Position numbers and translations under genes: made by a program. A stretch of DNA of 64,000 nucleotides, from contig NW_024468914.1 of assembly GCF_011745365.1 (NCBI RefSeq), positions 1,820,001 to 1,884,000 on the forward strand. The letters run 5' to 3'. This DNA is from Cryphonectria parasitica EP155. Taxonomy: Eukaryota; Ascomycota; Sordariomycetes; Diaporthales; Cryphonectriaceae. Positions 3,301 to 61,792 of the stretch are shown here, piece by piece. The notes under the pieces are model-generated. The model worked only from the letters and a program-made list of their open reading frames with translations, made no database searches and was not told the origin of the DNA. Numbering within the stretch: position 1 is the stretch's first letter; every line of letters begins with the position of its first letter.

Positions 3301-3948
3301 TAGTTCGCTTATAATAGCGCAGATATAAGCATAATGAAGAAGTTACTATTCTTTGCATTTTACAGATATAATCCAACAGCTTATTACAAAGCATTATTAG
3401 GAGCAGATGCAGAAGCTGTGAATAAAAGAGTTAAAAAGATTAAGAAAGTTTAGGAGAAACTCCGATTAGAATTACAATTCGTTTAAGAACGAATAATGCA
3501 ATATGCAAACTCCAAAAGGATTGAGGGATTAATTCTATAGGAAGGAGATAAGGTTTATCTACTTCGAAAAAACATCAAAATAACTAGATCTAGCAACAAG
3601 CTTAATTATAAGAAGTTAGAACTATTCAAAATCTTGCAACAGATTTCCCTAGTTAATTACGAGTTAGCATTACCTCATGGGATGAGAATATACTCAGTTT
3701 TCTACATTTTACTGCTGGAATCAGCAGCACAGGAAATACTAATAGACAATACAGTGGAAGTGGAAAATAATGAACCAGAATATGAAATAGAGAAGATTCT
3801 CAAGCATAGAAGCACAGATAATACAAGGGAATATCTTATCAAATGGAAAGGTTACTCAGCAAGCGAAAACTCTTGGGAATTGCGGAAAAACGTTAAAAAT
3901 GCTCAGAAAAAGGTAGCTGAATATTGGAAAAGGAAAATCAGCATCTAG
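232..3948 (+). pseudogene. R1 pol (protease-RT-RNase H-integrase-chromodomain)
   Basis: A single frame, -1 relative to gag, runs through the whole region interrupted by RIP stops. The aspartic protease site reads LLNSNA at 421-438, where the family has LLDSGA, so the catalytic Asp is now Asn. RT follows; its YLDD box is YLNN at 1722-1733. The RNase H and connection region runs to about 2500, then an integrase HHCC-like segment (~2720-2870) and core with SDRD at ~3105. The last 315 bases (3634-3948) are uninterrupted and hold the chromodomain, with EYEIEKIL, YLIKWKGY and ENSWE giving the three-aromatic cage that binds methylated H3K9 in chromoviruses. The TAG at 3946-3948 ends pol and overlaps the stop of the antisense ORF. 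Confidence 0.92.
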
Positions 3949-4618
3949 GATGATCGCTCCGCCCTGGAACGAGAATCAAGCGCTACAGTTTCACTCTCCA
4001 GAAGGAAAAGCTAACCAGATATGCTAGAATCAAAAGCCAAAGAACTCCAGTTAATAATCTCAAGATATCCCTGAGACATCAAGCGAATCTCCTCTTCACG
4101 AAGACTGCAATCCTTCTTATCAGCAAATCTTTCCAAGGAATTGAAACTATAATGAATCATTTCTGCAGCACGCTCCTCCAACAACCTTCGCTATTTCCAT
4201 GCACAATCAAGACGAGCCTGCAACGCTAACAAAGCTTGTAGAGCAGCAGCGTTTGCTGACTCTGCTTTAGCCTCCTTGCTTAAAACCTTGCGCTTTTTAC
4301 AAATCAAACGCTCCGCTAAAGAAGAAAATCAGTAACCACAGAAAATACTAAGAAACAAAGAAACCAACCAGCAGAAGCTGAGAAACAACCAGTATTACAG
4401 CTTTGATTCAGAGAAATATACTCCTTACAACGAGAAGAGTTTTCAGCAAAACAACAGAAAGCCCTCATCTCCCAACAATAAGCACAAGCAGGCATTTCAA
4501 TACCAAAAGCAGAAATAAGCTTAGCAAGATGATAATGCTCTTGAGTTTTCACTGAATAACTAGAATGCAATTTGTTAATTCTATTCAACATCTCGATTAG
4601 GAAAGCATGATTATATAC
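3945..4618 (-). pseudogene. R1 antisense ORF (six-Cys cluster + coiled coil), class A, with intron
   Basis: Frame on the strand opposite pol, filling the space between pol and the 3' LTR. Exon 1 (4618-4369) starts at the conserved xHNxAFLIE segment; an ATG lies at 4591. It holds cysteines spaced C-x2-C-x6-C-x8-C-x2-(C)-x6-C at 4486-4397, which is the GAL4 Zn2Cys6 spacing; the fifth Cys is Tyr by a TGT to TAT change. A 53-nt intron is inferred at 4368-4316 (GTTGGT donor, TTACTGAT branch, TTCTTTAG acceptor). Splicing joins phase 1 to phase 1 and continues into a Lys/Glu/Ala-rich coiled coil and the tail. Two TAGs interrupt exon 2, at codons that fit Gln or Trp. The terminal TAG (3947-3945) overlaps the pol TAG. 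Function is unknown; DNA or RNA binding is a guess from the cysteines. Confidence 0.75.
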
Positions 4619-4683
4619 GCGAATAACTTGCTAGAATACTTATAGAAGATCATTAGAGATAACAATCAATAGAAGAAAGATGA

Positions 4684-5148
4684 TATTATAACTCATCCAA
4701 CATGCAGATCACCCGCCAGAACACTCGGAACAACTGTTCGGAAAGACAGGAAAGGATTTAACATCTCAAGAACTAAGGCTTATATAAGCAAGGATTAGGG
4801 TTACAGGATCAGAATGAATCAGTGGCTGATCCATGATAATTCGAATTAATTGGATTATCCAGATGATCCAAGGGATCTAACAACTAATACTACTAATGGA
4901 ACTGAAGAAGCTGAATATATAAGAATGCATTCATTATCATTAGATAGATTTAGTATATAGCTCTTCAGTTATCAATCTAAGTATTCAGTTTCACATACTG
5001 AGTAGCTCCAAAGGCAGTAAATACTTGCATCGCTTATTAGGACTTGTATAGTTCCGTATTCAAGGACTTGATACTTTGATACCGCTCTTGTTAGCATAAA
5101 CCCCTTTGTATACTTAGGAATCTTCGGATTGCTGCAGTGCTCATTACA
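4684..5148 (+). repeat. R1 3' LTR (465 bp, class A)
   Basis: Begins TATTATAACTCATCC (consensus TGTTATAACTCATCC) and ends GCTGCAGTGCTCATTACA. TATATAAG at 4916-4923 is a TATA box. It lies between inverted arms AACTGAAGAAGCT (4900-4912) and AGCTCTTCAGTT (4959-4970). The preceding purine run of the internal region is the polypurine tract. Confidence 0.95.
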
Positions 5149-5232: not shown

Positions 5233-6000
5233 TCACTGCAAACAAATAAACAAACAGAAAGAATGAACTAGATTATCAAATAATATTTTCAATACTATAT
5301 TAATCAGAAACAGAATAACTAAATTAATCTATTGCTCCTTACATAGTTTGCTTATAATAGCGCAAATATAAGCATAATAAAGAAATTACTATTCTTCATA
5401 CTTTACAGATACAATTCAACAGCTTATTATAAAGCACTGCTAGAAGCAGATGCAGAAGCTGCAAACAAAAGAGTTAAGAAGATTAAGAAGATTTAGAAAG
5501 AACTTCAGTTAGAATTATAATTCATTCAGAAACGAATAATGCAATATGCAAACTCCAAAAGAATTGAGAAACTAATTCTATAGAAGGGAGATAAGATTTA
5601 TCTATTTCGGAAAAATATCAAAATAATTAAGCTTAGCAATAAACTTAATTATAAGAAGTTAGAACTATTCAAAATCTTATAATAAATCTTTCCAATTAAT
5701 TATAAGTTAGTATTATCTTATAGAATAAGAATATATTCGGTTTTCTATATCTTATTACTGAAATTAGCAGCATAGAAAATACTAATAAATAATATAGCAA
5801 AAGTAGAAAACAATGAATCAGAATATGAAATAGAAAAGATTTTCAAGCATAGAAGTATAAATAATATAAGAGAATATCTTATTAAGTGAAAAAGTTACTC
5901 AGCAAGCGAAAACTCGTGAAAACTATAGGAAAATATTGAAAATGCTCAGAAGAAAGTAGCTGAGTATTGGAAAAAAAAAAAAAGAGAAACCAACATCTAG
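5233..6000 (+). pseudogene. R2 pol fragment: integrase C-terminus and chromodomain
   Basis: Begins at LQTNKQTERMN, so the catalytic Glu of the integrase DDE triad is present while both Asp residues are lost with the 5' truncation. The frame continues through the integrase C-terminal domain to a degraded chromodomain (EYEIEKIF, then LIK with the following Trp now TGA). An A13 run at 5968-5983 lies just before the end. The TAG at 5998-6000 overlaps the antisense stop. Confidence 0.88.
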
Positions 6001-6426
6001 AACAGTCGCTCCGCTCCGAACTCAGAAACCTCGAAAATCTCACTCTCCAGAAAACCCAATCAATCCACTACTGAATTCCCTATATCCACAGAATTTCAAT
6101 CAAAACTCTTGAAAGAAGGATTCCCAACAATCACAGCAGATTCTTCTGCAACTACAGAACAAATCCCAGCAGCAATACAAGCTCACTTCTCTTCAGCTTC
6201 CTTACATTCCAGCTCCTTCACGCTAGAAAAACCTCAGCGAATAGCCTTTATCATTCTCTCGAATTACAAACGCTTCTGCTTCCGCAAGCGCCCTATCTCT
6301 GCAGCAGCATTACGCAGCTGCTTCTCAGCACTCTCGAATTAGTTCTCCAGATGCTGATATTGAACGCTTATTCAACGAATTTCCGCTGCGCTCAGCTTCT
6401 GAACATCGCATCAAGAGCAGCTTAGA
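5997..6426 (-). pseudogene. R2 antisense ORF, C-terminal half (class E)
   Basis: Joined to 28882-29090 it forms one continuous frame of 213 codons once R3 and one TSD copy are removed. This half starts at the last cysteine (CDVQ) and runs through a Gln/Glu/Leu-rich coiled coil (QLRNAAAEIGRLRKQKRL), then the tail with FD(W)NSVDIGNSVVD and FLESEI. About eight stops interrupt it, nearly all TGA or TAA/TAG where Arg, Gln or Trp is expected. The stop at 5999-5997 overlaps the pol TAG. Confidence 0.75.
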
Positions 6427-6918
6427 TGTTATAACTCATCCAACATGCAGATCACGAAAACAGGTCACAGGCAAACAAGAACCAGGTGTTATAACTCAAC
6501 ATCAGACAACTCACAAGGATTACATAATCCAGAGTTAGGGTTACAAGCTAACTAATCAGAAGAGCTCATCTGTACTTACTAAGCTTCAATAAGCATCACT
6601 GAGCAGCAGTGAGCTTCAGTAAGTACTACTGAGCAGCAGTAAGCTTTAGTAAGTATCAGCAAGCTATACTGAAGAGCTAAATATATAACTATATATTTAT
6701 TACTATTAGATAAATTATTATATATAACTCTTCAGTTATCAATCTAAGTATTAGATTACTCTCTATTCTGATAGCTCTAAAAGCAGTGAATACTTACATT
6801 GCTTATTGAGACTTGTATAATTCCGTATTTAAGAACTTAGCATTTTGATACTGCTTTTATTAATATAAATCCTCTTTGTATACTTTGGAATCTTCGGATT
6901 GCTGCAGTACTCATTACA
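6427..6918 (+). repeat. R3 5' LTR (492 bp, class C)
   Basis: TGTTATAAC start and TCATTACA end. U3 holds three 30-bp tandem units at 6583-6612, 6613-6642 and 6643-6672 that other LTR classes lack. The TATA box is followed by the right inverted arm CTCTTCAGTT. Confidence 0.96.
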
Positions 6919-6965
6919 TTTTGATAATTCTTATTTAAGAATAGTTCAGTATTATTTCTTAAGTA

Positions 6966-9080
6966 ATATGGAATATAATAGCTTTTCTAGAAATCTCTTT
7001 ATTCTTGCATGCTTTTATTTAGAAGGAATTAATTAACTAGATATATTAGCTTATTCAGTATATTCAGAATCTATGCAAATAATAGCAAGCTTAGAGCGCT
7101 ATTATTGCTAACTAATAAGCTTAGCTAGCTTAATAAGCTTAATAAGCACAGTTTATTTCTATAGCTATTAATGATACTGAAAAGGTATATAAGATGAATA
7201 AGCTTGCTATATATAATAGCAATCAGAAAATGCTATATGAATTCCTTATCTACTGCAGAGCGTATTTCTTATACTATATAACTCAGTTTACTATGAAATC
7301 TGAAAAGATTATTCTTACAGAAACTCATCTCGAAAAGAATGCTTTTATTTGATACAAGCCTTCTCTATACAATTACTTGGAGCATTAGAATAATTCTAAT
7401 GCATATATTCAGAATACTAAGAATATATTCGATTTCTTTGAAAGCTTTAAAAAAGCTTTTAAAGAAACTTTTAATAATTTCAATAAAGAATATATTATAG
7501 CTTAGCAGCTTATGAATCTTAGATAAACTAAGTTAGCTTCTGCTTATATAGTTAGATTTAAGCAGCTCTTAGCAAGATTTCTATAGGAAAATAAGAATTT
7601 TATAAAATATTATTATAAGGAATTTAAGAATAATATTAAGAACAAAATCTTTAAACAGAATTAGCTAGAGAATTTTGCAATATTCTCTAATTAAGCAATC
7701 TGCATTAATAATTATCTATACGAACAATAAGTAAAGAAATTCAAGAAAGAAGAAAGCTAGACTTGGAGATTTCCAGCTAATATAAGCAAGAAACTCCAAT
7801 ATAAGAATAGCGAATAATAGGATAGTACAGCTTAGAGCAGCACTATATATGCTAGTTCTATAGAATTCAATGCTGCTAATAAGTAGTATAGCAAGAGGAA
7901 CAGTATTACTTGCTACAACTATAATAAACAAGAATACATTATATATAATTGCTATTAATCTCAGAAGAACAAATAGCAATCAGTTCAGAAAGAATGCTAG
8001 ATAAATATTGCTTGATAATAGAAACTCAATCAACTAAGCAAAAATATCTCTTTGGAGCAAGTATTGAACTCTATTAATTATAGAAATCTTAGCTGAATAT
8101 TCTGCTATAATAATAACTGCTTAATATATCTCTTGAGTAAGAAAGATTTAGAATAGTTTCCTTAGAAATCTAGATGCTATAGGCAGATAGCAATAGCAGA
8201 GCGGAGATATATGCTTAGCATAATTATAAGCAGTAATAACTCGAACTACTTCGATATTACTAAACGAAGTATTCAGATACTGAAGAAAGAGCTTAATAAT
8301 AATGCTCTTTACTATTTCCTATTATCTGCATCAGATACTATAATCAGAGAAATGAATAAAGAATAATATTCTCTTAATTATTAGTATAAATATCTAAATA
8401 ATACTGAAAACACTTCTTAAGCAACAGAAAGATCAAGCTAGAATGAACAATCTAACGATTTACTAGAATCTCTTATAAATAATAAATCTAAGAAGCTTAC
8501 AGGAAGATTTCTCTTTAATATTGAATGGAATAAGAAAACAATATAAATTGAATATCTTATTTATAGAATAAAATTAGAAAAGCTCTTCATCTGTATTCTC
8601 TTGTAAGACATTAAAGCATAATAAGATAAAGATTCTTGGATTGATTTACTTTATAATCTATATTACAAACTAGCTTGAATCTCCTATATTTATTATAGCT
8701 GCAGAATGCATTTCTCAGATAAGATGCAATACAAATAGTTCCCTATTAGAGAATCAGAATAAATCTTTTAAGCTGTTGAAGAACAGAAATTCTGCTTCAG
8801 AAAGGTTTTCAATAGATAGCATTATAATGCATATATCGAATTACTAGATAACTGCTCTATATAATGCATAAATAAGAAAATAAAATAGTAGCAGTGCAAA
8901 ATAATACTCTGTATGATTTATATTAATAACAAAGTTTGCAACTAGCATTAATAGAAGAAAAATTAGGAATAATAATAATATGAGCAAAAGTAAGCTAAGA
9001 AGCTTGCTTAAGAAGCAGCAAAGCAAGCTTAGAAGAATAGATAGTTCTTAATAAACTCAAAAGAACAGGATTGCTTATAA
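6966..9080 (+). pseudogene. R3 gag
   Basis: Frame of 705 codons from an inferred start (ATA at 6966, probably ATG before RIP) to a TAA at 9078-9080. The N-terminal ~75 residues are Gln-rich and coiled-coil-like, then a capsid-like region from MNKLAIYNSNQK (7194). A CCHC knuckle lies at 7911-7952; here the second Cys and the His are both Tyr. The C-terminal tail is Gln/Lys-rich. Many TAG/TAA codons stand for Gln, so no protein is expected. The start codon is inference: a stop precedes it and no intact ATG is near. Confidence 0.85.
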
Positions 9081-12000
9081 AGAAACTGCAGATAATTAAA
9101 CTGAAATAGTTCTTATATAAAGCTTCTAGAACAAATTATGCTTATATCAAGTTTAATATATATATTCAAGAATATAAATATAGCACACTATTGAATAGTA
9201 GCGCTTAGAGAAACTTTATATTCCTATATATTATTAATCAGATATAATTATAATAAAGATGAAAGAGATGCTCATATACTCTCAGCATTATAAAAGAATA
9301 ATCTATTATATACAACTAAGAAGTAATCAATAAGAAGACTAATTATCTATCTATCTTGATTCAAGAATGCATAATTAGAGCTTTCTTTGATATTACAGAT
9401 ATAGCGCAGTATAAGCTGATTATAGAGCTTTTATAGCTCAAAAAGCATAATTCTCGAATTAATTAAACTACTAGCTAAATCTTATAAGAACAAGCTATAT
9501 CCAGAGAAATAATTATAATCAATAGCGCAGAATTGAAGCTAGTAATTAAAGAATACTCAGAAAAAGAAGCTTTATATAACTTCATACATATTTCCAAGTT
9601 AGCAGAGCTAGCAGTTCAAGAAGAAGAACTTAGTAATAAGCAAATCCAAATAATGCTAGAGTACTAATAGATTAGCAAAACAATGGAAGCAAGATTCTTA
9701 GCAGATTGATCTGCTCTGAAGCAGCAAAAAAAAGCTTCAGAATATGAATTGTAAAACTATACAAGAAAAACCTCGAAATCAGGCTCTCAAGCGCTCAGTC
9801 TAGCCTGAAGCGAATGCTCAAAGCTCTCGAAAACGCTATCAGAAAAGAAGCATGCTTAACAGTACCTATTATTCCTCTAGATAGCAGAAACAGCATAGGA
9901 ATCAGAACCAATACTTGCAAACATATTACAAGAATATTATAAATTCAAGAAACTATTCCAGAAAGAATTGGATATAGAATTGCTAGAATATAGCTTATAC
10001 AACTACAAGATTCTGCTACAAAAAGGAAAATAGCTTAAATTCTTTCCTATTTATAAACTAAATAAAGCATAGCTAGAAACATTTCAAGAATATCTTGATA
10101 AGAATCTTAAGAAAGAATATATATAATTATTATAATTACTAGCAGAATATTCTATCTTGTTTATATCTAAGAAAAATAGCAAGCTTAGATTATATATTAA
10201 TTATAAGCAATTTAATAATATTATAATTAAGAACTAATATTTATTGCTACTTATTAAGAAATTATAAGATAAGCTGCAAGAAGTATAATAATTTATAATT
10301 CTAGATTTAAAAAAAGCTTATAATCTAATTAGAATAAAAGAAAAAGAAGAATGGAAAACTGCTTTTAGAATATGCTACAAATACTATGAATATTTGATTA
10401 TGCTTTTTAGTTTAACAAATACTTCAGCTTTATTTCAGAAAATGATTAATTATATTCTATACAAATATCTGAATTAATTCATTATTGCTTATCTTAATAA
10501 CATTCTTATTTACTCTTGAATACTTGAAGAATATAAGGAATATATGAAAACAGTATTACAAATGCTTCAAGATGCAAAACTCCTTATGGAATCCGCAAAA
10601 AGTCACTTTTATATACAAAAGATCAACTACTTCGGATTCATAATCAAGCTAGAATATATTAAGCTACAGAAAAATAAGATAGAAGCTATTAGGAATTAGC
10701 TAGTTTCTAAGAATATTAGGAATATTAGATCTTTTCTTGAATATATCAACTTTTATAAGCAGTTTATTAAGAACTATAGCTGAATTATATACTCTTTTAT
10801 AAATCTTATCAAAAAAGAATAGCTTTTCGAATAAATCTCTAAGATATAAGAAGCTTTCAATAAGATTATTAAGCATATTATCTTAGAACTAGTTCTGTAT
10901 AAAGCAGATCTCTATAAATCCTTTGAAATTAAGATTAATATATTAGGATATGCATTTGGAGAACAACTTGGCTAGCAAGATGATTAAGAATATCTAAGAA
11001 TTGTAAGCAACTTTTCAAAGAAGTTGAATAGCTCAGAAATCAACTATAGAATCTCTAATCAGAAACTCATAGCAATAGTAAAAGCTTTTAAAGAATAGCA
11101 ATACTATCTTATTAGCATATAATACTTAATTATAGTTTACTTAGATTACAAGAATCTGATTATATTCATAATAACTAAGATTTTGAATAAATAATAAGTT
11201 AGATAAATAGAATTCCTTTTACAGTTTAACTTCAAGATTATATACTGCAAAAGCTCAGAAAACGAATAAGCAGATGCTCTTAGCAGAAAACTAGATTATC
11301 GAGATATAGATTCCTCGGATATATAGAATATCTTTATCCAAAACGAGTTGGGAAACCTTGTTAATGCATACAGAGAACTAAATGCTGCCTTCAGAATTGA
11401 ATCTTCAGAAAAAAACTCAGAATTGATAACTCTAAATAAACAAGATAACTATATCAAGAATGTATATAATGCATCAGCATACAGATATTAAGGAGTTAGA
11501 GTAATCTATAAATGCATTAAAAAATACTGAAACTTATTAGATCTTAAGAAAAGAATTGGGAATATTCTATAACAATATAATAGCTATAAGAAGAATAAGA
11601 TAGAAAAATACAAGCTTTACAAACTACTGCATCTCTTACTAGTATCTATAATTATTTAGCAATCTATTAATCTAAACTTTATTATTAAGCTATCTTTCTT
11701 ATGAGAATGTTTAACTAAGATACAATATAATAGCATTTTAATAATGATTTGCAAACTAAGCAAGTATACTTACTTTCTTCTCTACAAGGAAAGCAGTATA
11801 GCAGAAGAACTTATATATATATTTCTCAGAATAATCATTGCTAATTATAGCATATTAGAAGAAATAATCTCTAATAGAGATAGAAAGTTCAATTCGAAAT
11901 TTTGAACTTCACTTATAAAACAGCTCGGAATATACTATAGAATATTTATAGCATTTCATCTGCAGATAAATAAATAAACAGAAAGAATAAATTAGATTAT

Positions 12001-12718
12001 TAAATAGTATCTTTAATACTATATTAATCAGAAACAGAATAACTGGATTAATCTATTGCTTCTTATATAATTCGCTTATAATAATGCAGATATGAATATA
12101 ATAAAGAAATTACTATTCTTTATACTCTATAAATATAATCTAATAGCTTATTACGAAGTACTGCTGAGAGCAGATGCAGAAGCTGCAAATAAAAGGATTA
12201 AGAAGATTAAGAAAGTTTAGAAGAAACTTCAATCAGAATTATAATTCATTTAAGAATGAATAATGCAGTATGCAAACTTCAAAAGAATTGAGAAACTAAT
12301 CCTACAGAAGGGAGATAAGATTTATCTACTTCGAAAAAAAAATATCAAAACAACTAAACTCAGCAATAAGCTTAACTATAAGAAGTTAGAACTATTCAAA
12401 ATCTTGCAACAGATTTCTTTGATTAATTATAAATTAGCATTATCTTATAAAATGAGAATATATCCAGTTTTCCACATCTTACTGCTAAAATCAGCAGCAC
12501 AGGAAATGCTAGCAGATAATACAGCAGAAGTAGAAAATAATGAACCAGAGTATAAGATAGAAAAGATTCTCAAGCATAGAAGCACGAATAGCACGAGAGA
12601 ATACCTTATTAAATGAAAAGATTATCTAGCAAGCGAAAACTTATAAGAACTACAGAAGAATATTAAAAACACTTAGGAAAAGATAGCTGAATATTGGAAA
12701 AGGAAAGCTAGCACCTAA
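8999..12718 (+). pseudogene. R3 pol
   Basis: Frame is -1 to gag, opening after a TAA at 8996-8998 and overlapping gag by 82 nt. Protease site LLNSSA at 9188-9205 (Asp and Gly both changed). RT YLNN at 10490-10501. The integrase first catalytic Asp is replaced in LNFI and the second in SNRD, with TERxN kept. The last part, 12263-12616, is open and reaches into the chromodomain; its WKG has become a stop. The TAA at 12716-12718 overlaps the antisense stop. Confidence 0.9.
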
Positions 12719-13416
12719 GACGATTGCTCCGCTCCGAACCGAGATCCAGGAGCCTTAGAGATCTCGCTTTCCAGAAAACCCGACTAATCCATCACTGCAT
12801 TCCCTATATCTACAGAATTCCAGTCGAAATCTCCAGAGGAAGAACTCCTAGGAGCAACAACGAGCTCCGCGGAAATCACAGCCTGCATCTCAGCAGCTAC
12901 GCGCTTGCGCTTCTCCTTCTTCAGGCTCTTATTCATCAGCTTTATCCTCTTCTTCTAAAGAAAGCGTTGCTGCTTCTTTAGCTGTAATAAACAAGCTAGC
13001 AATTCATTTATACAAGCCTGAAGTTCTAATAACTGCTCCTTCTCCTCAAGCTTATGCTCATCAATATAGATTAACTTATTAGTAATCCGGAATACTAAGA
13101 GGAAAAGTTTTAGTTAACAAAGAAAGATATTCAGAAGGAAATACTAATAAAAAGAAATAAGCATACAATCTGCATTGCAGAAACGATTCTGCTTAATACA
13201 TTGCGAATAACTCTTTATTCTATCTATTATCTTATATAATATCTCTTCTTCCAAATACAAAGAATATAGCATTATCTCGTATCCATTGAATTCAATATAA
13301 TCGAAACGTTTCTGATAAGCAAGGCTCTTCTTGGAAAGGATAAAGAAAGAAGATTTACTAATGCAAGAATTTAAGGTTCTATTCAACATCTTGATTAGAA
13401 AGGCATAATTATGCAT
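12715..13416 (-). pseudogene. R3 antisense ORF (class C)
   Basis: One frame of 234 codons starting at an intact ATG (MHNYAFLIKMLNR). The N-terminal 90 residues are uninterrupted and end in a cysteine group (C-x6-C-x3-C). A strong coiled coil follows (LEEKEQLLELQ, LKKQQRFL), then a Lys/Arg-rich stretch and the tail FDWNSVDIGNAVMD. Four internal stops, all explicable by RIP (CAG/CAA or TGG changes). No intron is needed. It shares its ends with classes B, D and E but differs in the middle. Confidence 0.78.
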
Positions 13417-14007: not shown

Positions 14008-14684
14008 ATACATAATTATGCTTTTCTAATTGAAATATCAAATAGAATTAACAAATTGTATTCTAATTGTTCAGTAAAAACTTAAAAGTATTATTATCTT
14101 GCTAAGCTTATTTCTGCTTTTAGTATTGAAATGTTTGCTTGTGCTTATTATTAGGAGATAGAAGCTTTCTATTATTTTGCTGAAAACTCTTCTCATTATG
14201 AGGAATGTATTTCTCTGGATTAAAGCTGTAATACTAATCGTTTCTTAGCTTCTGCTAATTAGTTTCTTCATTTCTTAGTATTCTCTATAGTTACTAATTT
14301 TCTTCTTCAGCAGAGCATTTAATTTGTAAAAAGTGCAAGATTTTAAGCAAGAAGGCTGAGGCAGAGTTAGCAAATACTGCTGCTTTACAAATCTTGCTAG
14401 CATCGCAGGCCTGTTTTGATTATATACGGAAATAGCGAAAGCTATTAAAGAAGCGTGCTGCAGAAATGATTCGTTATAGCTTCAATTCCTTGAAGGAGTT
14501 TGCTAATGAGAAGAATTGCAGTCTTCGTGAAGAGAAGACTCGTCTGATGTTTTAGGAACATCTTGAGGTTATCAACTGGAGTTCCTTGGATTTGAGAGGT
14601 TCTGTAGTAGATTGGTTGAGCTTTCTGAAGAGTGAGGTTTCCGAGGCTTCTGGATTTTGGTTCGGGGCGGAGCGATTGTCTTAG
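14008..14684 (+). pseudogene. R4 antisense ORF (class A, intron form)
   Basis: Exon 1 at 14008-14257 (250 nt, as in R1 and R6), intron 14258-14310 (53 nt), exon 2 at 14311-14684. The donor GT is now AT by RIP, while branch TTACTAAT and acceptor TTCTTCAG are intact. The cysteine cluster is degraded to FACAYY and SSHYEEC, so the fifth Cys, lost in R1, is kept here. Exon 2 carries RKLLKKRAAEMI and the tail INWSSLDLRGSVVDWLSFL, which keeps Trp residues that other copies lost. The TAG at 14682-14684 overlaps the pol TAA on the other strand. Confidence 0.75.
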
Positions 14685-21198: not shown

Positions 21199-21882
21199 AT
21201 CTTTCGTAAGTATTCTGGCAAATCTTCCGTCCGTAATCTTGCCTTTCTAATCAAGATATTAAACAGAGTTAATTCTTGTTATATTGCTAAGCTTTATTCT
21301 CATTCTTTGCAGAAATCATTCCTTCTTTCTGCTATAGCTACTTTCAGTTCTCCTTTGCTCATGCTTTGCTCATACTACAAAGATTACAATCTTTCAGCTG
21401 AGTGCAAGATTGCTAAATCCGAATCTTCCTGTTATTAAATCTGCATATATCTGAGTTTGTTGAATTGCAATGTTCGTAGCCTGATGCCTGCACAATTGAA
21501 TTGTGTGACTGCTTAATATCGTTGCTTGGAGGCGGAGATGGAGGCGATTGAAGAGGAGGCTGTTGAGCTGAATGCTAAACTCCTTAGGCTGCATAAGCAG
21601 AAAAGGATGTAGTACGAAAAGATGATGTGCATTGTTTGTTAGGGTATTAACAATGTGGAGGAGTTGGAAAGGATAGAGGCGGAGGAGCAGGCTTGCATTG
21701 CTGCTGGAGTTCGTTCTGTAGTTGCAGAGAAATCTGCTGTGATTGCTGAAGATCCTTCTTTTGAGGGTTTTAACTGGAATTCTGTGGATATAGGGAATGC
21801 AGTGGTAAATTGGTCGGGTTTTCTGAAGAGTGAGATTCCCAAAGCTTCTGGGTTTCGGTTTGGGGCGGAGCAATCGTCTTAG
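21199..21882 (+). pseudogene. R5 antisense ORF (class B)
   Basis: Single frame of 228 codons by comparison with R8. The N-terminus holds RNLAFLIKILNR. The cysteines lie in LCSYY, AECKIAKSESSCY and ICIYLSLLNC. Then comes a Glu-rich coiled coil (CLEAEMEAIEEEAVELNAK). The last 75 codons (21655-21882) are fully open and end in the tail FNWNSVDIGNAVVNWSGFL and FGAEQSS. Only four internal stops, clearly fewer than in pol. The codon matching R8's ATG is ACG, so the start is uncertain. The TAG at 21880-21882 overlaps the pol TAA. Confidence 0.8.
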
Positions 21883-24800
21883 ATACTAGTTTCCTTTCTT
21901 TTCCAATACTTAGCTACTTTCTCCTGAGTGTTCTTAACATTCTTCTGTGGTTTCTATGAATTTTCGCTTGCTGAGTAACCTTTCTACTTGATGAGATATT
22001 TCCTTGTATTATCTGTGCTTCTATGCTTGAGGATCTTCTCTACCTTATACTCTGATTCATTGTTTTCCACTTCTGCTATTTTATCTATTAGTATTTCCTG
22101 TACTGCTGGTTCCAGCAGTGAAATATGAAAAACTAAGTATATTCTCATCTCATAAGATAATGCTAACTTGTAATTAACTAGGAAGATTTGTTGCAAGATT
22201 TTGAATAGTCCTAACTTCTTATAGTTAAGTTTGTTGCTAGATCTGATTATTTTGATATTTTTCCAAAGTAGATAAACCTTATCTCCTTTCTATAAGATTG
22301 ATTCCTCAATCCTTTTAGAGTTTGCATACTGTATTATTCGTTCTTAAACGAATTATAATTCTGATTGAAGTTCCTTCTGAACTTTCTTAATCTTCTTAAT
22401 CCTTTTATCTGCAGCTTCTGCATCTGCTCCTAGCAATACTTTGTAGTAAGCTGTTGAATTATATCTATAGAATATAAAGAATAATAACTTCTTTATTATA
22501 TTTATATCTGTATTATTATAAGCGAACTATATAAAAAGCAATAAATCAATTCAGTTATTCTGTTTCTAATTGATATAGTATTATAAATACTGTTCAATAA
22601 CTTGATTCATTCTTTTTATTTATTTATCTATTTGTAAGTGAAATGCTATGAATATTCTATAGTATATTCCGAGCTATTTTATAAGCAAAGTTCAAAACTT
22701 CGAGTTGAACTTTCTATCTCTATTAGAAATCACTTCTTCTAATATGCTATAATTAGCAATAATCATTCTGAGAAATGTATATACAAGTTTCTCTGCTGTA
22801 CTGCTTTCCTTATAGAGAAGAAAATAAGCATACTTGCTCAGTCTGCAAACCACTACTAGAATGCTATCATATTATACTTTAGTTAAGAGTTCTCGTAAGA
22901 AAAGTAGCTTAATAATGAAGTTTAAACTAATGAATTACTAAACAGTTGTAAGTACTGATAAGAGATGCAGTAATCCATAAAGCTTATATCTTTCTACCTT
23001 ATTTTTCTTACAGCTATTGCATTGTTATAAGATATTTTCAATTCTTTTCCTAAGATTTAATGAATTCTAATATCTTTTAATACATTCATAGATTACTCTA
23101 ATTCTCTAATATCCGTATGCTGATGCACTATATACATTCTTGATGTAGTTATCTTATTTATTCAGAGTTATTAATTCTAAATCCCTTTCTGAAAGTTCGA
23201 TTCTGAAAGCAGCATTCAGTTCTCTATGCACATTAACAAGATTTCCTGATTTATCTTGAGCGAAGATATTCTGTATATCCGAAGAATCTGCATTTCAATA
23301 GTTTGATTTTCTGCTGAAAGTATCTGCTTATCCATTTTCTGAGCTTTTGCAATATATAATCTTGAAGTTAAACTATAAGAAGAATTCTGCTCATCTAACT
23401 TATTGCTTATTCAAAACCTTGATTATTATAAATGTAATTAGATTCTTATAATCTAAGTGAACTATAATCGAGTATTGTATACTAATAAGATAGTATTGCT
23501 ACTTCTTAAAAGCTTTCATTATTGCTATGAGTTTCTGATTAGGGATTCTGTAGTTGATTTCCGAGCTATTCAACTTCTTTGAGAAGTTGCTTATAATCCT
23601 TAAATGTTCTTGGTTGTCTCGCTAGCCAAGTTGTTCTCCGAGTGCATATTCTGATACATTAGTCTCAATTTCAAAGAGTTTATAGGAGTCTGCTTTATAC
23701 AGAACTAGCTCTGAAGTAATATGCTTGATAATCTTATCAAAAGCTTCTTATGCTTTAGAGATTCATTTGAAGAATTAATCCCTTTTAGTAAGATTTGTAA
23801 GAGGATATGCAATTCGGCTATAGTTCTTGATGAACTGCTTATAGAAGTTGATATATTTAAGGAAAAACCTGATATCTCTAATGTTCCTGAGAATTGGCCA
23901 GTTCCTGATAGCTTCTACCTTATCTTTTTATAGCTTGATGTATTCTAGCTTGATCATGAACCCGAAATAATCAACTTTTTGTATGTAAAAGTAGCTTTTT
24001 GCAGGTTCTACAAGAAGTTTTGCATCTTAGAGCGTTTGCAATACTGTTTTCACATGTTTTTTATATTCTTTCAATATTCAAGAGTAAATAAGAATATTAT
24101 TAAGGTAGGTAATAACGAACTGATCCAGATGCTTATATAGAATATGATTGATCATTTTCTGAAACAAAGCTAGAATATTCGTTAAACCAAAGAGCATAAT
24201 CAAATATTCGTAGTATTTATAGCATATTCTGAAAGCAGTTTTCCATTCTTCTTCTTCCTTTACTCTAATTAGATTATAAGCTTCTTTCAGATTTAGAACT
24301 ATAAACTACTATACTTCTTGCAATCTATCTTATAATTCCTTAATAAGTAGCAATGAATATCAGTTCTTAATTGTAATATCATTGAATTGCTTATAATCAA
24401 TATATAGCTTAAGCTTGCTATTTTTCTTGAGTACAAACAGAATAGGATATTCTGCTAGTAATTGCAATAATTATATATATCCTTTCCTAAGATTCTTATC
24501 AAGATACTCCCTAAGTGCCTCTAGTTATGCTTTATCTAGTTTATAAATAGGGAAGAATTTGAGCTATTTCCCTTCTTGTAGCAGAATCTTGTAATTATAT
24601 AAGCTGTATTCCAGCAATCCTGTATCCAATTCTTCCTGAAATAGTTTCTTAAACTTATAGTATTTCTATAATATATTCGCAAGTATTGATTCTGATTCTT
24701 ATGCTGTTTCTGCTATCTGAAAGAACAGTAGATACTGCTGAGCATGCTTCTTTTCGTTCGTTGTTTTTAGTAACGTTTTTGAGAGCCTTAAGCGTTTGCT

Positions 24801-28881: not shown

Positions 28882-29090
28882 TGAACATATTCAGTATAAC
28901 AGAAGGAATCCTCAATGGAGACTTAACAGAACTAAATACTATAATTCTTGCAGAAAGAACAGAAAAGCATAATAACAGCGTTTTTAAGAACTAAGGAAAG
29001 AAGAGAATCCTTTTGTTTAGTTTTTTCAGCTCAAGAATAAAATTTGTTGATTCTATTCAACATCTCAATTAGAAAAGCAAGATTATGCAT
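28882..29090 (-). pseudogene. R2 antisense ORF, N-terminal half (class E)
   Basis: Starts at an intact ATG (MHNLAFLIEMLNRINKF) at 29090. Holds the first cysteines, C-x2-C-x7-C-x8-C-x3-(Y), then is cut by R3. Rejoined with 5997-6426 the frame is unbroken (total 639 nt). Confidence 0.75.
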
Positions 29091-30915: not shown

Positions 30916-32628
30916 CAGCCAGAACCAACTGCAGGAACTGGGGGGCTTAGGCATCGAGGCCTTAGGCAGCTACGGTCAGGGCATCTAGGCCCAGAAGCTC
31001 TGAAGGCGTTGGTCAACCACGCGCGCGGGGTTCGAATCAATGGCACGAAACAAGCTCGATGTGAGTTCTGTGCTACGGCCCACGCTCGACAGGTGGTTTC
31101 AAGGCGAGCCTCGGAAAATGTATCCAGGCGACCCTTTTGGCGGATTCCATGGGACCTGTTCGCTTTCCCAGCAGGTCACATGCACCAGAGCTGGGTCCTT
31201 TTGATTAAGGACGAATACAGCGGAAAAATGTTTGTTTATACCCTGCGCTCGAAGAAGGGTTCAGGAATCTCACAGATCCTCATGAACTTTGAGAGCTGGG
31301 TACGGCGAAGATATGGCCTTTCAGTGTGCAAAATTCGACAGGATAATGAGACGGCTGTGATCTCAAGCAGGGGAAACACTGCATATCAGGTCTGGTGTGA
31401 GGAGGAGGGGGTAGAACTCGAGCTTTCCCCTTCCCACACACATGAACCAAACGGCGGAGCCGAGCGGGGAGGACAAGAAATCATCACGAAACCTATAAAG
31501 ATGAGAGAAGGAGCGGGGTTACCAGAGCGCCTCTGGCCATACACAGTCGAGGCCGCCGCGTTTCTCTTCAACATTTCCCCGCGCCAAGGCACGAAGATGC
31601 GGTCGCCAAACAAAGTTCTAGAGCGCTAGTTTGCTCAGTACTTCCGTTGGTATGCTCCCTCTGTGACGCACGAGCTCACAGCAGACCTCAGACCAGACTG
31701 GAGTAGCATTTATGCCTATGGATGTCGCGCATACCCACTGCATAAAGAGCGGGAAGCATATCAAAACAAACAGCAATATCAGATACAAGCACGGGGGCAC
31801 ATAGGATATCTGGTGGGGTATATCTCTTCAAACATTTATCAGATATGGGTTCCCGCGCTCAACCAGGTATTTACGACGCGGAATGTAACGTTCGACGAGC
31901 AGCTGTTCTATCATCTGGAGCGGGAAGAAGAGCTTCCGGCATCTGAGGCTCGAGAGGTGATCTTCGAGCTCCGAGAGGAGGAACTGCAGAACCCAGCTTC
32001 AATCTGGGAGCTACTTGGAACAACAGAACGCGCCGCGGATACCTCACCTGCCTTGGATACAGAGCTCCATGCAGTCAACAGGAGCTCGGGGGTGAGGAAG
32101 GAGAACCAGGCAGGTCATCTCCTTAGCCCTGAGGGCTCGAGAGAGCACTCAATGGCGCTGGAAGTCTCTCAAGACGAGAGCAGGGAAGCTTACCAAAATG
32201 ACAATGGTAGCTACGAAAGACTCGGACGCGAGCAACGGGATCCTTTTACTCCTCCAGAGGAGCATATAGGAGATACAATTGTGGTGCGCACTGACACGCC
32301 ACCACTAGAGATGAGCTCTGTTCCTGAACGCTCGGCTCGAGGAGAGCGTGAAGACAGGAATTCTGCCATCTCAACAAGGAGAAGCCGCCGGCTCCAAGGG
32401 AGACCGCCGGACACGAATCCCTCCTTCTTCAATGTCTGGGAGACAGACCAAAAAGAAGCAGGGTTTGACAGGCTCTCTTCTCTCCTATCCTTTCTGCCTG
32501 ATCAACAGAAAGCACTGGAAAGAGGAGAGCGAGTACACACCACGCTCCATGCAGTCTTCAAAGGAGCTGTATTCAGCAGCGTTCCACACAAGTCAAGCGG
32601 AATCAAGTCGCTTGACAAGCGAAGTTGA
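30916..32628 (+). pseudogene. Ty1/copia pol fragment: pre-integrase and integrase
   Basis: One frame from a TGA at 30913-30915 to 32628 with a single internal TAG (31627-31629). GHLGPEALKALV and the CEFC pair (30982-31070) are the GAG-pre-integrase zinc motif. The integrase DDE triad is visible: Asp in IKDEYSG (31210), Asp in RQDNE (31342), Glu in GGAERGG (31462). The C-terminal half carries the acidic linker and RSRRLQGRPPDT and LHAVFKGA segments that precede RT in fungal copia elements. RT and RNase H are absent: the element is truncated near 32600. Codon use is GC-rich and the stop is CAG-to-TAG-like, so it lies outside the heavily RIPped block. Confidence 0.88.
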
Positions 32629-36480: not shown

Positions 36481-36499
36481 CAGGCTTCGGCCTTGCCAG

Positions 36500-36697
36500 A
36501 CGGCGCCGCTACACCCAGCCCTTTGGGGACAACGACCATGCCTGCCAAAATCCCCCTATAGAGCACATCGACCAGACTACGCCGCTGCACCCAGCCCTGC
36601 CGGGATAACAACCATGCCTGCCAAAACCCTATAGAGCACATCAACCAGACTACGCCGCTGCACCCAGCCCTGCCGGGATAACGACCATGCCTGAAAG
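36500..36697. repeat. Tandem repeat, ~72-76 bp x 2.7
   Basis: Units begin GCCGCTGCACCCAGCC at 36505, 36581 and 36653 and contain GATAACGACCATGCCTG and TATAGAGCACATC. No gene is seen in it. Confidence 0.85.
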
Positions 36698-36827
36698 AAT
36701 GCTCGGGGCTGTGGTGATGATGCTCTAGGACTGCCCACTAGCAGGAGATACCTACCCTCTTACCCTCTCTCTCTACATGTCCATAAGTGCTGGGTCGCTG
36801 CTGGGTGTTCTCCAGGCTCCGCCCTTG

Positions 36828-45800: not shown

Positions 45801-46486
45801 TAGAAATAGGATAACTGAGTTAACTTATTGCTTCTTATACAGTTCGCTTATAATAGTGCAGATACGAGTACAATAAAGAAATCACTATTCTTCGTACTCT
45901 ATGGATACAATCCAACAGCTTATTATAAGGCACTGCTGGAAGCAAATGCAGAAGCTGCAGATAAAAGAACTAAGAAGATTAAGAAAGTTCAGGAGGAACT
46001 CTGATTAGAATTACAATTCATTCAAGAATGAATAATGCGATATGCAAACTCCAAAAGGATTGAGAGATTAATTCTACAGAAGGAAGATAAGGTCTACCTA
46101 CTTCGAAAAAACATCAAAACAACCAGACTCAGCAACAAACTCGATTACAAGAAGTTGGGGCTATTCAAAATCTTATAACAGATTTCCCTAGTTAATTATG
46201 AGTTAGCATTATCTTATGAAATGAGGATATACTCAGTTTTCTATATCTTACTGCTAGAATTAGCAGCGCAGAAAATACTAATAGATAATACAGCAGAAGT
46301 AGAAAACAATAAACTAGAATATAAGATAGAGAAGATTCTCAAGCACAGAGGCATAGACAATACAAGAGAATATCTTGTCAAATGGAAAGATTACTCAGCA
46401 AGCGAAAATTCTTAGGAACTGAAGAAAAACATTAAAAATGCTTAGGAAAAAGTAGCTGAATATTGAAAAAGAAAACCACTACTTAA
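42771..46486 (+). pseudogene. R6 pol
   Basis: Opens after TAA 42768-42770, -1 to gag. Protease VLLNSSAQRNFIS (42959-42997). RT is open at 44142-44471 and contains PASFQEIINHILY and YLNN (44262-44273). An integrase zinc-binding CNSCKK segment lies at ~45350. First catalytic Asp replaced in SLNFI, second in SNKD, Glu kept in QTERMN. Chromodomain open at 46221-46415 with LVKWKDY. A one-base deletion near 46474 shifts the last codons, so the ancestral stop (46484-46486) is read only after correcting the frame. Confidence 0.9.
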
Positions 46487-47153
46487 GACCTCTCCGCCCC
46501 AAAGCGAGAATCAGACGCTGCAGTTTCACTCTCCAGAAGAAAAAGCCAACCAGATACGCTAGAATCAAGGGCCAAGAAACTTCAGTTGATAATCTCAAGA
46601 TATCTCTGAAATATCAAACAAATCTCCTCTTTACGAAGACTGCAATCCTTCTCATCAGCAAACCCTTCCAAGGAGTTGAAACTGCAATAAATCATTTCTG
46701 CAATACGTTCCTCCAACAGCCTTCGCTATTTCCGTGCACAATCAAAACGAGCCTGCAATACCAGCAAGGCTTGTAGAGCAGCAGCATTTGCTGATTCTGC
46801 CTCAGCCTTCTTACTCAAAACCTTGCACTTTTCACAAATCAAACGCCCTGCTAAAGAAGAAAATTAGTAACTACAGAGAATACTAAGAAGCAAAGAAACC
46901 AACCAGCAGAAGCCGAGAAACAACCAGTATCACAGCTTTAACTCAGAGAAACACACTCCTCACAACGAGAAGAGTTTTCAGCGAAACAACAGAAAGCCCT
47001 CATCTCCCAATAATGAGCACAAGCAAGCATTTCAATACCAAAAGCAGAAATAAGCTTAGCAAAACAATAATGCTCTTAAGTTTTCACTGAATGATTAGAA
47101 TGCAATTTGTTAATTCTATTCAATATTTCAATTAGAAAAGCATAATTGTATAT
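46483..47153 (-). pseudogene. R6 antisense ORF (class A, intron form)
   Basis: Exon 1 at 47153-46904 (250 nt), intron 46903-46851 (53 nt; GTTGGT, TTACTAAT branch, TTCTTTAG), exon 2 at 46850-46483. All three splice signals are intact here. Exon 2 starts GRLICEKCKVLSKKAEAESANA, adding a CxxC pair after the junction, then RRLLEERIAEMI and the Ser-rich tail. Two in-frame stops remain in exon 2. The terminal TAA (46485-46483) shares TTAA with the pol end. Confidence 0.78.
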
Positions 47154-53000: not shown

Positions 53001-53732
53001 AGAATGAATTAGATTATTGAATAATATCTTTAATACTATATTAACTAGAAACAGAATAACTAAGTTAATCTATTATTCCTTATATAGTTTGCTTATAATA
53101 ATGCAAATATAAGCATAATAAAAAAGTTATTATTCTTTATACTTTATAAATATAATCCAACAGCTTATTACAAAGCATTGCAAGAAGCAGATGCAGAAGC
53201 TGCAAACAAGAGAATCAAGAAGATTAAGAAAGTTTAAAAGAAACTTTGATCAGAATTACAATTCATCTAGAAATGAATAATACAATATGCAAACTCTAAG
53301 AGAATTGAGAAACTAATCCTACAGAAGAGAGATAAAATTTACTTACTTTGAAAAAACATTAAAACAACTAGATCCAGCAATAAGCTTAATTATAAGAAGT
53401 TAGAATCATTCAAAATCTTGCAACGGATTTTTCCGATTAATTATAAATTAGCATTATCTTATAGAATAAGAATACACTCAGTTTTCCACATCTTATTGCT
53501 AAAACTAGTAGCACAGAAAATATTAGCAAACAATATAGCAGAAGTAGAAAATAATAAATCAGAGTATAAGATAGAAAAGATTCTTAAGTACAGAAGCATA
53601 GATAATACAAGGAAATATCTCATTAAATGAAAAGATTACTTAGCAAGCGAAAATTCTTGGAAATCATAGAAAAACATTAAAAATGCTTAGGAAAAGATAG
53701 CTAAATATTGAAAAAGAAAAACTAGCATCTAA
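50004..53732 (+). pseudogene. R7 pol
   Basis: 1243 codons. The RT box is half mutated: YLDN at 51507-51518, the first Asp surviving. Integrase and chromodomain are badly broken (53418-53630 open, then LIK followed by TGA). The TAA at 53730-53732 overlaps the antisense TAG. Confidence 0.88.
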
Positions 53733-54053
53733 GACAATTGCTCTGCTCCGAACTGAAACTCAGAAGCTTCAGAAACCTCACTCTCCAGAAAGCTCAACTA
53801 ATCTACTACAGAACCTCCCAAATCTACAGAATTTCAATCGAAACCTTCAAAGAAAGAATCTTCAGCTATAACAACAGATTCCCCTGCTATTACAGCCTGC
53901 ACTTCAGCAGCAATATGCACTCTCTCAGCTTCAGCCTTCTCAGCTTTCATACAATCCAATTCCTTCATGCAAGTAATATTACAATATAGAGCATGTTTCA
54001 TCTTCTTGGATTACATCCGCTTCTATTAGCGCAGATGAAGAAGCTTGATTTTC
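53729..54053 (-). pseudogene. R7 antisense ORF, C-terminal half (class D)
   Basis: Joined to 61470-61792 (one TSD copy removed) it gives 648 nt in one frame. This half has CMKELDCMKAEKAEAERV (helical, charged) and the tail FD(W)NSVDLGGSVVD, SFLESEVSEASEF. Separated from its N-terminus by the R8 insertion. Confidence 0.75.
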
Positions 54054-54527: not shown

Positions 54528-55214
54528 ATGATCTTTCATAAGTACTCTAGCAAATCTTCCGTCCATAATCTTGCCTTCCTAATCGAGATATCAAACAAAG
54601 TTAGTTCTCGTTATGTTACTAAGCCTTATTCTCATTCTTCGCAGAAATCATCCCTTCTTTCTGCTATAGCTATCTTCGGTTCTCCTTTACTCATACTTTG
54701 CTTATACTGCGAAGATCACAATCTTTCAGCTGAATGCAAGATTGCTAAATCCGAATCTTCCTATTATTAGATCTGCATGCATCTGAGTTTATCGAATTGC
54801 GATGTTCGTAGCCTAATGCCTGCACAATTGAATCGTATAACTGCTCAATACTATTGCCTGAAGGCAGAGGTGGAAGCGATCAAAGAAAAGGCTGCTGAGC
54901 TGAATGCTAAACTCCTTAGGCTATATAAGCAGAAAAGGATGTAGTATGAAAAGATGATGCATGCTATTCGTTGGAATATTAACAATGTAGAGGAGTTGGA
55001 AAGAGTGAAGGCGGAGGAGTAGGCTTGCGTTGCTGCTGGGATTCGTTCTGTAATTGCAGAGGAATCTGCTGTAATTGCTAAAGATCCTTCTTTTGAGAGT
55101 TTTAACTGGAATTCTGTGAATCTGGGGAATTCTGTGATTAACTAGTTGGGTTTCCTGAAAAGTAAGATTTCCGAAGCTTCTAGATTTCGGTTTGGAGCGG
55201 AGCAATCGTCTTAG
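54528..55214 (+). pseudogene. R8 antisense ORF (class B), nearly intact
   Basis: Starts at ATG 54528 and runs 229 codons in one frame with only four internal TAGs. Segments: VHNLAFLIEISNK, then cysteines LCLYCEDHNLSAECK spaced C-x2-C-x8-C, continuing to SNCDVRS. Coiled coil CLKAEVEAIKEKAAELNAK and KQKRM follow, then EELERVKAEE and the tail FNWNSVNLGNSVIN and FGAEQSS. The TAG (55212-55214) overlaps the pol TAA. The best template for modelling the family. Function unknown. Confidence 0.82.
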
Positions 55215-61464: not shown

Positions 61465-61469
61465 TTTTC

Positions 61470-61792
61470 CTTTTCTTGATTTCGTTCTCCAACTTTCGAT
61501 ATTGAATAGCAATATTACAAAGCTCCTCAGAGGAAAAGCTTATGATATTGCACTTGGAGCAGCTTAATCGAATACATTCGATATAACAAGAAGAATCTCC
61601 GGAAAATACTTTGCAGAACCCGAAATCATAATCCTTGCAATAGGAATAAACAAGCATTTCAATAAAATTTTCCAAGAAACAGAAAACTAAGAGATCTTGA
61701 TTTTGAATACTCTTTGGAACGGAAGAAGGTTTGCAAATACGGGATTTGTTGATTTTATTTAATATCTCAATCAGAAAAGCAAGATTATGCAT
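61470..61792 (-). pseudogene. R7 antisense ORF, N-terminal half (class D), uninterrupted
   Basis: Starts at ATG 61792 (MHNLAFLIEILNKINKSRICK) and is free of stops up to the R8 insertion, 107 codons. Cysteines: YC-x7-C-x8-C-x3-C-x7-C in DFGFCKVFSGDSSCYIEC and IRLSCSKCNI, the clearest cluster in the window. The SSEELCNIAIQYRKLENEIKK helix follows. The absence of any stop in 323 bases of RIPped DNA is notable. Confidence 0.8.

What the first reader, a model, noticed from the sequence alone, without database searches (positions are those of the whole stretch)
3945..4618. Every Ty3 copy carries an antisense gene in its 3' module
In all eight copies (R1 3945-4618, R2 split, R3 12715-13416, R4 14008-14684, R5 21199-21882, R6 46483-47153, R7 split, R8 54528-55214) the strand opposite pol has a frame of ~205-235 codons. 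It starts with xHNxAFLIEMLNR, holds a cysteine cluster, then a coiled coil, then a tail (NWNSVDIGxxVxxW...FLxSE). Two copies split by insertions rejoin in perfect frame. It has far fewer stops than gag-pol. Coding by this strand is seen; a regulatory or nucleic-acid-binding role is inference. I recall similar unnamed coiled-coil proteins in ascomycete annotations but cannot check.
Basis: partly seen in the sequence, partly recalled or inferred. Interest (0 to 1): 0.88.

Follow-up and report, generated by a model that had tools for sequence, protein, structure and literature searches.

The report
Antisense gene in fungal Ty3 retrotransposons
Copies of a family of fungal Ty3 jumping elements carry a second gene written backwards between their enzyme gene and their end repeat; selection has kept it as a protein with six cysteines and a coiled coil, and in some subfamilies it seems to hold an intron, though nobody has yet shown that it is made or what it does.

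Summary
The antisense frame is real and selected. It lies tail to tail with pol: in 93 of 97 fetched loci the pol end is on the opposite strand, in none on the same strand. Transversions, which RIP does not make, show purifying selection between subfamilies: omega 0.21-0.33 in three pairings; 0.13 in the Cys cluster, 0.05 in the tail, none detected in the N-terminus. Nearly all stops look like C>T/G>A damage; no codon is a stop in every copy of A, B, C, D or E.

The single frame claimed for R1, R4 and R6 is wrong. In subfamilies A and B the two open pieces are separated by 53-56 nt with intron-like ends, same place and phase; frameshift indels concentrate there (5 events in 2,173 nt against 3 in 48,903). 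The GT survives in 22 of 41 copies only. C-H lack it.

The protein (about 190-216 aa) matches no Pfam, NCBIfam or PDB family convincingly. Antisense genes at this place are a known kind (Boty brtn, plant gene23 and TRP28 genes, HTLV HBZ); the Cys-coil architecture and the intron may be new. Function and transcription are inferred. Homologues outside this genome could not be searched.

The parts
4369..4591 (-). R1 antisense gene, exon 1 (starts ATG, N-terminus and Cys cluster)
   Evidence: exon 1 phase 1 as in 41 of 41 A/B/B2 rows
4316..4368 (-). R1 intron-like stretch, 53 nt, G|GTTGGTTT ... ACTGATTTTCTTCTTTAG|CGGAG
   Evidence: splicing itself not shown
3948..4315 (-). R1 antisense gene, exon 2 (coiled coil and tail); 2 in-frame stops in R1 over both exons
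3945..3948 (.). CTAG in which the antisense stop (3945-3947) and the pol stop (3946-3948) overlap by 2 nt
   Evidence: [CT]TAG at the matching place in 62 of 80 aligned rows (summed by me; pol frame of each row not checked)
4592..4618 (-). conserved 'xxxAFLIE' stretch before the ATG; coding or a DNA-level signal, undecided
4681..5148 (+). R1 3' LTR, ends approximate, preceded by a purine-rich stretch (about 4668-4680)
   Evidence: repeated at many places of the window; start TGATATTATAAC; exact ends inferred
12718..13389 (-). R3 antisense gene (subfamily B): exon 1 13149-13389, intron-like 13095-13148 (GT lost), exon 2 12718-13094, stop 12715-12717
14035..14684 (+). R4 antisense gene (subfamily A with a C/D-like tail): exon 1 14035-14257, intron-like 14258-14310 (GT lost), exon 2 14311-14681, stop to 14684
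21256..21882 (+). R5 antisense gene (subfamily C), no intron; 4 in-frame stops
46483..47126 (-). R6 antisense gene (subfamily A): exon 1 46904-47126, intron-like 46851-46903, exon 2 46486-46850, stop 46483-46485
54588..55214 (+). R8 antisense gene (subfamily C), no intron; 4 in-frame stops
6006..6416 (-). R2, C-terminal piece (D-like)
28883..29063 (-). R2, N-terminal piece (D-like)
53732..54045 (-). R7, C-terminal piece (G-like)
61465..61765 (-). R7, N-terminal piece (G-like)

Best explanation
It is a protein-coding accessory gene of fungal Ty3 elements with a chromodomain, antisense to gag-pol, filling the space between the pol stop and the 3' LTR. The likely path: the host polymerase starts in or next to the 3' LTR on the antisense strand; in subfamilies A and B, and perhaps B2, the spliceosome removes a 50-56 nt intron; the product of about 200 aa binds metal through six cysteines, dimerises through its coiled coil and acts in the nucleus on the element's own DNA, RNA or chromatin, tuning expression or integration. 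The intron survives retrotransposition because the RNA that is copied is the sense strand, in which it is not an intron. Shown: the frame, its selection, the tail-to-tail layout, the conserved cysteines, intron-like ends with phase and indel pattern. Inferred: transcription, splicing, metal binding, dimerisation, nuclear role.
For: Tail-to-tail with pol in 93 of 97 loci. Transversion omega 0.33, 0.27, 0.21 in the antisense frame (P 3e-7, 4e-10, 2e-9 in three overlapping pairings); Cys cluster 0.13, coiled coil 0.33, tail 0.05. Stops explained by C>T/G>A from a sister copy: A 66/66, B 41/42, C 43/43 rows (39/39 places), D 72/74. Intron: no continuous frame in 22/22 A and 14/14 B rows; phase 1 in 41/41; five frameshift indels in 2,173 nt against three in 48,903 (P 7e-6); branch-like and pyrimidine-rich 3' ends. 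Six Cys columns in A, C, D, E. Weak profile hits mostly to coiled coils.
Against: No RNA or protein data. GT at the 5' end of the intron-like stretch is kept in 22 of 41 rows (A 15/22, B 4/14, B2 3/5) and AG in 37 of 41 (counted by me); the losses fit G>A damage. GTTGGT is not the commonest fungal donor (recalled). B2 is in frame through the stretch in 4 of 5 rows. Codon-position bias within A exon 2 and B exon 2 is not significant. The N-terminus shows no constraint (omega 2.5). One sense frame also looks constrained (0.33-0.52). No zinc-cluster profile matches. Six-cysteine pattern is weak in B and B2.
Confidence: 0.55

Rival explanations
1. The functional product is the antisense RNA (RNAi trigger or interfering transcript); the frame is a relic.
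For: Antisense RNA regulation of retroelements is discussed in the review PMC7264820 (passages); the copies in the window are full of stops.
Against: Purifying selection on amino acids between subfamilies and stop-free copies in A, B, E and G.
Confidence: 0.1
2. The sense-strand frame that shares third codon positions is the real gene (an env-like sense ORF, e.g. 163 aa at 21394-21885) and antisense openness is its shadow.
For: That frame gives omega 0.33-0.52 and is long open in R5; another sense frame has few stops in D.
Against: It has 2-9 stops in each of 16 representatives, against 0-3 in the antisense frame; antisense position 2 is the least variable, 110 transversions at position 1 against 75 at position 2 (P 0.006); no Pfam match to two such sense pieces. 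The other sense frame, with few stops, has omega of 1.7 or more.
Confidence: 0.04
3. In A and B the frame change is a programmed ribosomal frameshift or an old inactivating mutation, not an intron.
For: The 5' GT is missing in 19 of 41 rows.
Against: B has in-frame stops in 14 of 14 rows and variable lengths (53-56 nt) in the stretch, which one frameshift site would not tolerate; same place and phase in A, B and B2; relatives C-H lack the stretch.
Confidence: 0.08
4. It is a host gene captured, or a domesticated gene, that only happens to sit in the elements.
Against: 93 of 97 loci keep pol beside it; at least 150 matches in the genome. No stand-alone host copy appeared, but none was specifically looked for, and four loci showed no pol in the fetched flank.
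Confidence: 0.08
5. Same gene, but the protein works in the cytoplasm or particle (RNA chaperone, Gag partner) or against host silencing rather than as a nuclear factor.
For: Nothing here separates these; cysteine clusters also bind RNA.
Against: Nuclear localisation of plant GENE23 and HTLV HBZ (as stated in PMC7264820 and PMC11963269, passages) makes the nuclear role the first guess.
Confidence: 0.15

Closest known systems
brtn of Boty-like / BcGypsy1 retrotransposons, Botrytis cinerea (Zhao et al. 2011, Virology 417:248; not held; seen only as cited)
   Same: Fungal Ty3 element with a chromodomain and an additional antisense gene between pol and the 3' LTR (PMC7264820 section and passages, PMC4227169 and PMC8365987 passages).
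   Different: Sequence, domains and any intron of BRTN could not be compared; homology is unknown.
Plant aORF-3R genes: Grande gene23, RIRE2, Retand TRP28, PvRetro13
   Same: Place and orientation; presence in most copies; a nuclear or DNA-binding role proposed (PMC7264820, PMC11963269; passages).
   Different: Plant elements; TRP28 (PF04195) did not come up in the Pfam scans; no intron is mentioned in the passages seen ('intron' occurs 0 times in the main text of either paper).
HBZ of HTLV-1
   Same: Antisense, coil-containing, spliced and read from the 3' LTR (HBZ details partly recalled; antisense promoter and nuclear localisation).
   Different: HBZ is a bZIP protein of a retrovirus; here a six-Cys cluster precedes the coil. 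No homology was tested or is claimed.
Zn(II)2Cys6 (GAL4-type) fungal proteins
   Same: Six cysteines before a coiled coil, with compatible spacing (spacing rule recalled).
   Different: No Zn_clus match in 17 of 17 pieces, none in the PDB profile search; mostly C-x7-C where GAL4 has C-x6-C; the basic stretch of the first half is missing.

Membership tests
Antisense additional ORF (aORF-3R) of LTR retrotransposons | Frame antisense to gag-pol between pol and the 3' LTR | tested here: met
   93 of 97 loci, LTR side by similarity in the window
Antisense additional ORF (aORF-3R) of LTR retrotransposons | Conserved in most copies of the family | tested here: met
   copies were found through this gene, so elements lacking it were not counted
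Antisense additional ORF (aORF-3R) of LTR retrotransposons | Antisense transcription | not testable with these tools
   no RNA data
brtn (Boty) | Sequence homology to BRTN | not tested
   BRTN sequence not at hand; protein database off, paper not held
Ty3 chromovirus (the carrier element) | Integrase and chromodomain in pol | tested here: met
   L105 pieces: Chromo E 7.7e-17, SH3_Tf2-1 E 6.4e-21, Integrase_p58_C above cut-off, rve E 6e-7 but below its cut-off; pol phylogeny not made
Zn(II)2Cys6 zinc cluster | Match to the zinc-cluster profile | tested here: not met
Zn(II)2Cys6 zinc cluster | Six cysteines with zinc-cluster spacing | tested here: inconclusive
   C-x2-C-x7-C-x9-C-x2-C-x7-C with variations; pieces were selected by a six-Cys pattern; B and B2 keep fewer
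Spliceosomal intron | GT...AG with branch-like motif, constant place and phase | tested here: met
   GT in 22 and AG in 37 of 41 rows
Spliceosomal intron | Observed removal from RNA | not testable with these tools
   no RNA data
HBZ-like antisense bZIP | Basic region plus leucine zipper | tested here: not met
   no bZIP match in Pfam scans of L105, L106, L107

The most novel reading that the evidence does not exclude
Fungal chromoviruses evolved, independently of HTLV, a spliced antisense regulatory gene: a metal-cluster, coiled-coil nuclear factor read from the 3' LTR. Its intron can last in a retroelement only because the gene faces against the genomic RNA, so the intron itself records that antisense mRNA was spliced and translated through the subfamilies' history.
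Probability: 0.33. Interest if true: 0.75.

Novelty: new variant of a known kind. Interest (0 to 1): 0.58.

Why it matters
Antisense accessory genes of LTR elements are known, but what they do is not. Here one genome offers nine diverged subfamilies (A, B, B2, C-H), enough to show purifying selection in spite of RIP, to mark which parts matter (Cys cluster and tail, not the N-terminus) and to give a simple RNA test: a 53-54 nt difference across one junction. An intron in an antisense gene of a retroelement would be evolutionary evidence for a spliced antisense mRNA.

Tried and rejected
No result: protein homologues outside the genome (database off). Pfam and NCBIfam for L106 and L107, Pfam for L105 and a divergent copy in L087, PDB for L107: nothing at or above a cut-off; the best were weak (Pfam E 0.012-0.021, PDB E 7.2). 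PDB with the whole-protein profile: 28 matches, best E 0.054, mainly coiled coils. PDB with the Cys profile: HEP200, a Cys-rich protein, E 4e-8 for the whole sequence but no single stretch better than E 2.4, read as composition; no zinc-cluster chain. Pfam on 17 Cys pieces: scattered weak hits, best E 0.015 (PSI_integrin), no Zn_clus. Rfam on the window: 0 matches. Direct repeats of 80 or more in 5900-12800: none. Structure prediction was not asked for, because the tool's stated list of sources does not name loci from whole-genome searches.

Considered and dropped: my first donor site for A (T|GTAATA, note 1), which would split a conserved cysteine codon and has no counterpart in B; for B a donor at T|GTATGC, because less damaged copies read GCATGC. 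A second intron upstream (GTAAGT about 50 nt before the ATG): branch-like motif only about 5 nt from the AG; left open.

Rows dropped and choices made: one search held 89 sources; the alignments hold 82 rows. L026, L080, L082 and L104 were left out as duplicates of other rows or places, L062, L096 and L105 because the start motif was not found. L066 and R8 are the same place and both stayed in C (13 rows, 12 places); noticed. It counts R8's 4 stops twice (43 instead of 39) and adds one row to the coding denominator. The 16 representatives were chosen by me, mostly less damaged copies; each pairing used 8-10 of them. The three pairings share members, so their P values are not independent. The event counts 5 and 3 were made by me from the rows, where the B reference itself carries one of the deletions; the 4-nt coding insertion in L048 lies where that copy's tail diverges.

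Full report
What is there. The window is C6:1820001-1884000 of a genome of 43.8 Mb in 17 contigs. Its name was not given; RIP-like damage and chromodomain Ty3 elements point to a filamentous fungus (inference). Genome searches with R1, R3 and R5 DNA gave 41, 43 and 47 matches, with only the 40 best candidates scored each time. A 158-aa piece of another copy gave 150 matches from the 150 scored of 371 candidates. I sorted the fetched copies into A (R1, R4, R6), B (R3), B2, C (R5, R8), D, E, F, G and H.

Layout. In 97 distinct fetched loci (L025-L124 without three duplicates) 93 show the pol C-terminus on the opposite strand and none on the same strand; 89 have it within 250 nt of the end of the antisense match, and in four (L048, L076, L114, L119) no pol was found in the flank. 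Pol pieces of L105 match Chromo, SH3_Tf2-1 and Integrase_p58_C above their cut-offs, and the integrase core just below its own. In R1 the pol stop (3946-3948) and the antisense stop (3945-3947) overlap by 2 nt. The bases that allow this, [CT]TAG, stand at that place in 62 of 80 rows; I did not check the pol frame of every row.

Selection free of RIP. RIP makes transitions, so I counted transversions. Within subfamilies there are few. Columns with a transversion at codon positions 1, 2, 3: D 5, 8, 22 (P 3e-4), C 3, 3, 9 (P 0.03), E 1, 3, 7 (P 0.04); A exon 2 5, 5, 8, B exon 2 4, 5, 6 and B2 exon 2 2, 1, 2 are not significant; exon 1 has none in A and B2 and two in B. Between subfamilies omega by transversions is 0.33, 0.27 and 0.21 in three overlapping pairings. 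The two shifted antisense frames and two sense frames give 1.4 or more. The third sense frame, which shares third positions, gives 0.33-0.52. It is told apart by stops (2-9 in each of 16 representatives against 0-3) and by position: 110 transversions at antisense position 1 against 75 at position 2 (P 0.006). One other sense frame has few stops (0-9; none in F_L116), but an omega of 1.7 or more. By region: N-terminus 2.5 (1 synonymous, 12 not; no constraint seen), Cys cluster 0.13, coiled coil 0.33, tail 0.05.

Stops. In the antisense frame, stops are explained by C>T or G>A from a sense codon seen in a sister copy in 66 of 66 (A), 41 of 42 (B), 43 of 43 rows or 39 of 39 places (C) and 72 of 74 (D). 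Codons that are a stop in every row: 0 in A, B, C, D and E, 1 in B2 (five rows). The other five frames have 0-10; the 0 is a sense frame of D. Rows free of stops in the laid-out frame: four in A, one in B, two in E, and L105 of G.

The intron-like stretch. Reading on from exon 1 meets a stop in 22 of 22 A rows, 14 of 14 B rows and 1 of 5 B2 rows. Lengths are 53 (21 rows) and 54 in A, 53-56 in B, 50-51 in B2; exon 1 ends in phase 1 in 41 of 41 rows. Ends read GTTGGT...AG in less damaged A and B rows and GTAAGC...AG in less damaged B2 rows, with TTACTGAT, TAACTAAG or GCTAAT before a pyrimidine-rich AG. GT is kept in 15 of 22, 4 of 14 and 3 of 5 rows, AG in 21, 13 and 3 (my count); R3 and R4 have lost the GT. 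The losses fit G>A damage, but they also mean that the donor is seen intact in about half the rows. Indels that are not multiples of three: five events by my count in 2,173 nt (L034, L048, L049, L056, L060) against three in 48,903 nt of coding sequence (L043, L048, L081; P 7e-6). Representatives of C-H lack the stretch, and the joined A/B/B2 proteins align to them without an extra segment of that size. B2 is the weakest case.

The protein. Seventeen stop-free pieces that fit a six-cysteine pattern, from A, C, D, E, F and G, give C-x2-C-x7-C-x9-C-x2-C-x7-C with small variations. As they were chosen by that pattern, the better evidence is the census of all rows: C, or Y as expected from RIP, fills six such columns in A, C, D and E, fewer in B and B2. 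A charged helical part follows, whose weak profile hits in the PDB are mainly coiled coils such as GCN4, ZapB and BST-2. Order and spacing recall Zn(II)2Cys6 proteins, but no profile matches, so it is not filed there.

How it may work. An antisense mRNA from the 3' LTR, spliced where the intron exists, would make a nuclear factor with a metal site and a dimer coil. The strongest inference from the anatomy concerns the intron: one in the sense strand would be lost in retrotransposition, one facing the other way would not. The target of the protein is open.

Literature. The kind is known. The review PMC7264820 (one section and passages) names Boty in Botrytis and Sclerotinia and several plant families. 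The brtn paper is not held. PMC8365987, PMC5987419 (a Monilinia transcript similar to truncated Pol and to BRTN), PMC4227169 and PMC11963269 were seen as passages. Eight text searches listed no paper that I could recognise, from titles and abstract starts, as describing an intron in such a gene or this Cys-coil architecture in fungi; only the best-ranked rows were listed, and most subscription papers are outside that library.

Noticed in passing
G000:C2:1-1690000: By my hand count 63 of the 150 matches lie in the first 1.69 Mb of contig C2 (about 4% of the genome), an unusual cluster of these elements.
   Followed up: no
window 14035-14684 (R4): R4 looks like a recombinant: subfamily A exons with a tail like that of C/D/E (VVDWLSFLKSEVSEASGFWFGAERLS).
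   Followed up: partly
window about 4592-4660 and the same place in other copies: The stretch between the LTR side and the antisense ATG holds a GTAAGT-like motif and a CCTTCCTAATCGAG motif similar across subfamilies; it could be a 5' UTR intron, a promoter or a sense-strand signal near the polypurine tract.
   Followed up: partly
L087:2718-3317(+): A divergent, long-open copy of the same protein family with a different C-terminal part, beside another copy on the other strand.
   Followed up: partly
L105, L114, L116: These copies have a changed start region: the AFLIE stretch is in another frame than the gene, so the N-terminus differs.
   Followed up: no
window 21394-21885(-): A 163-codon sense-strand open frame opposite the R5 antisense gene; no Pfam match; probably a by-product of the antisense codons.
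   Followed up: partly
window 30916-32628(+): Two adjoining open frames of 237 and 332 codons that look to me like Ty1/copia integrase and following polyprotein, less damaged than the Ty3 copies (not scanned).
   Followed up: no
window 33538-37959: A stretch with several long overlapping open frames on both strands and low-complexity proteins, unlike the AT-rich surroundings.
   Followed up: no
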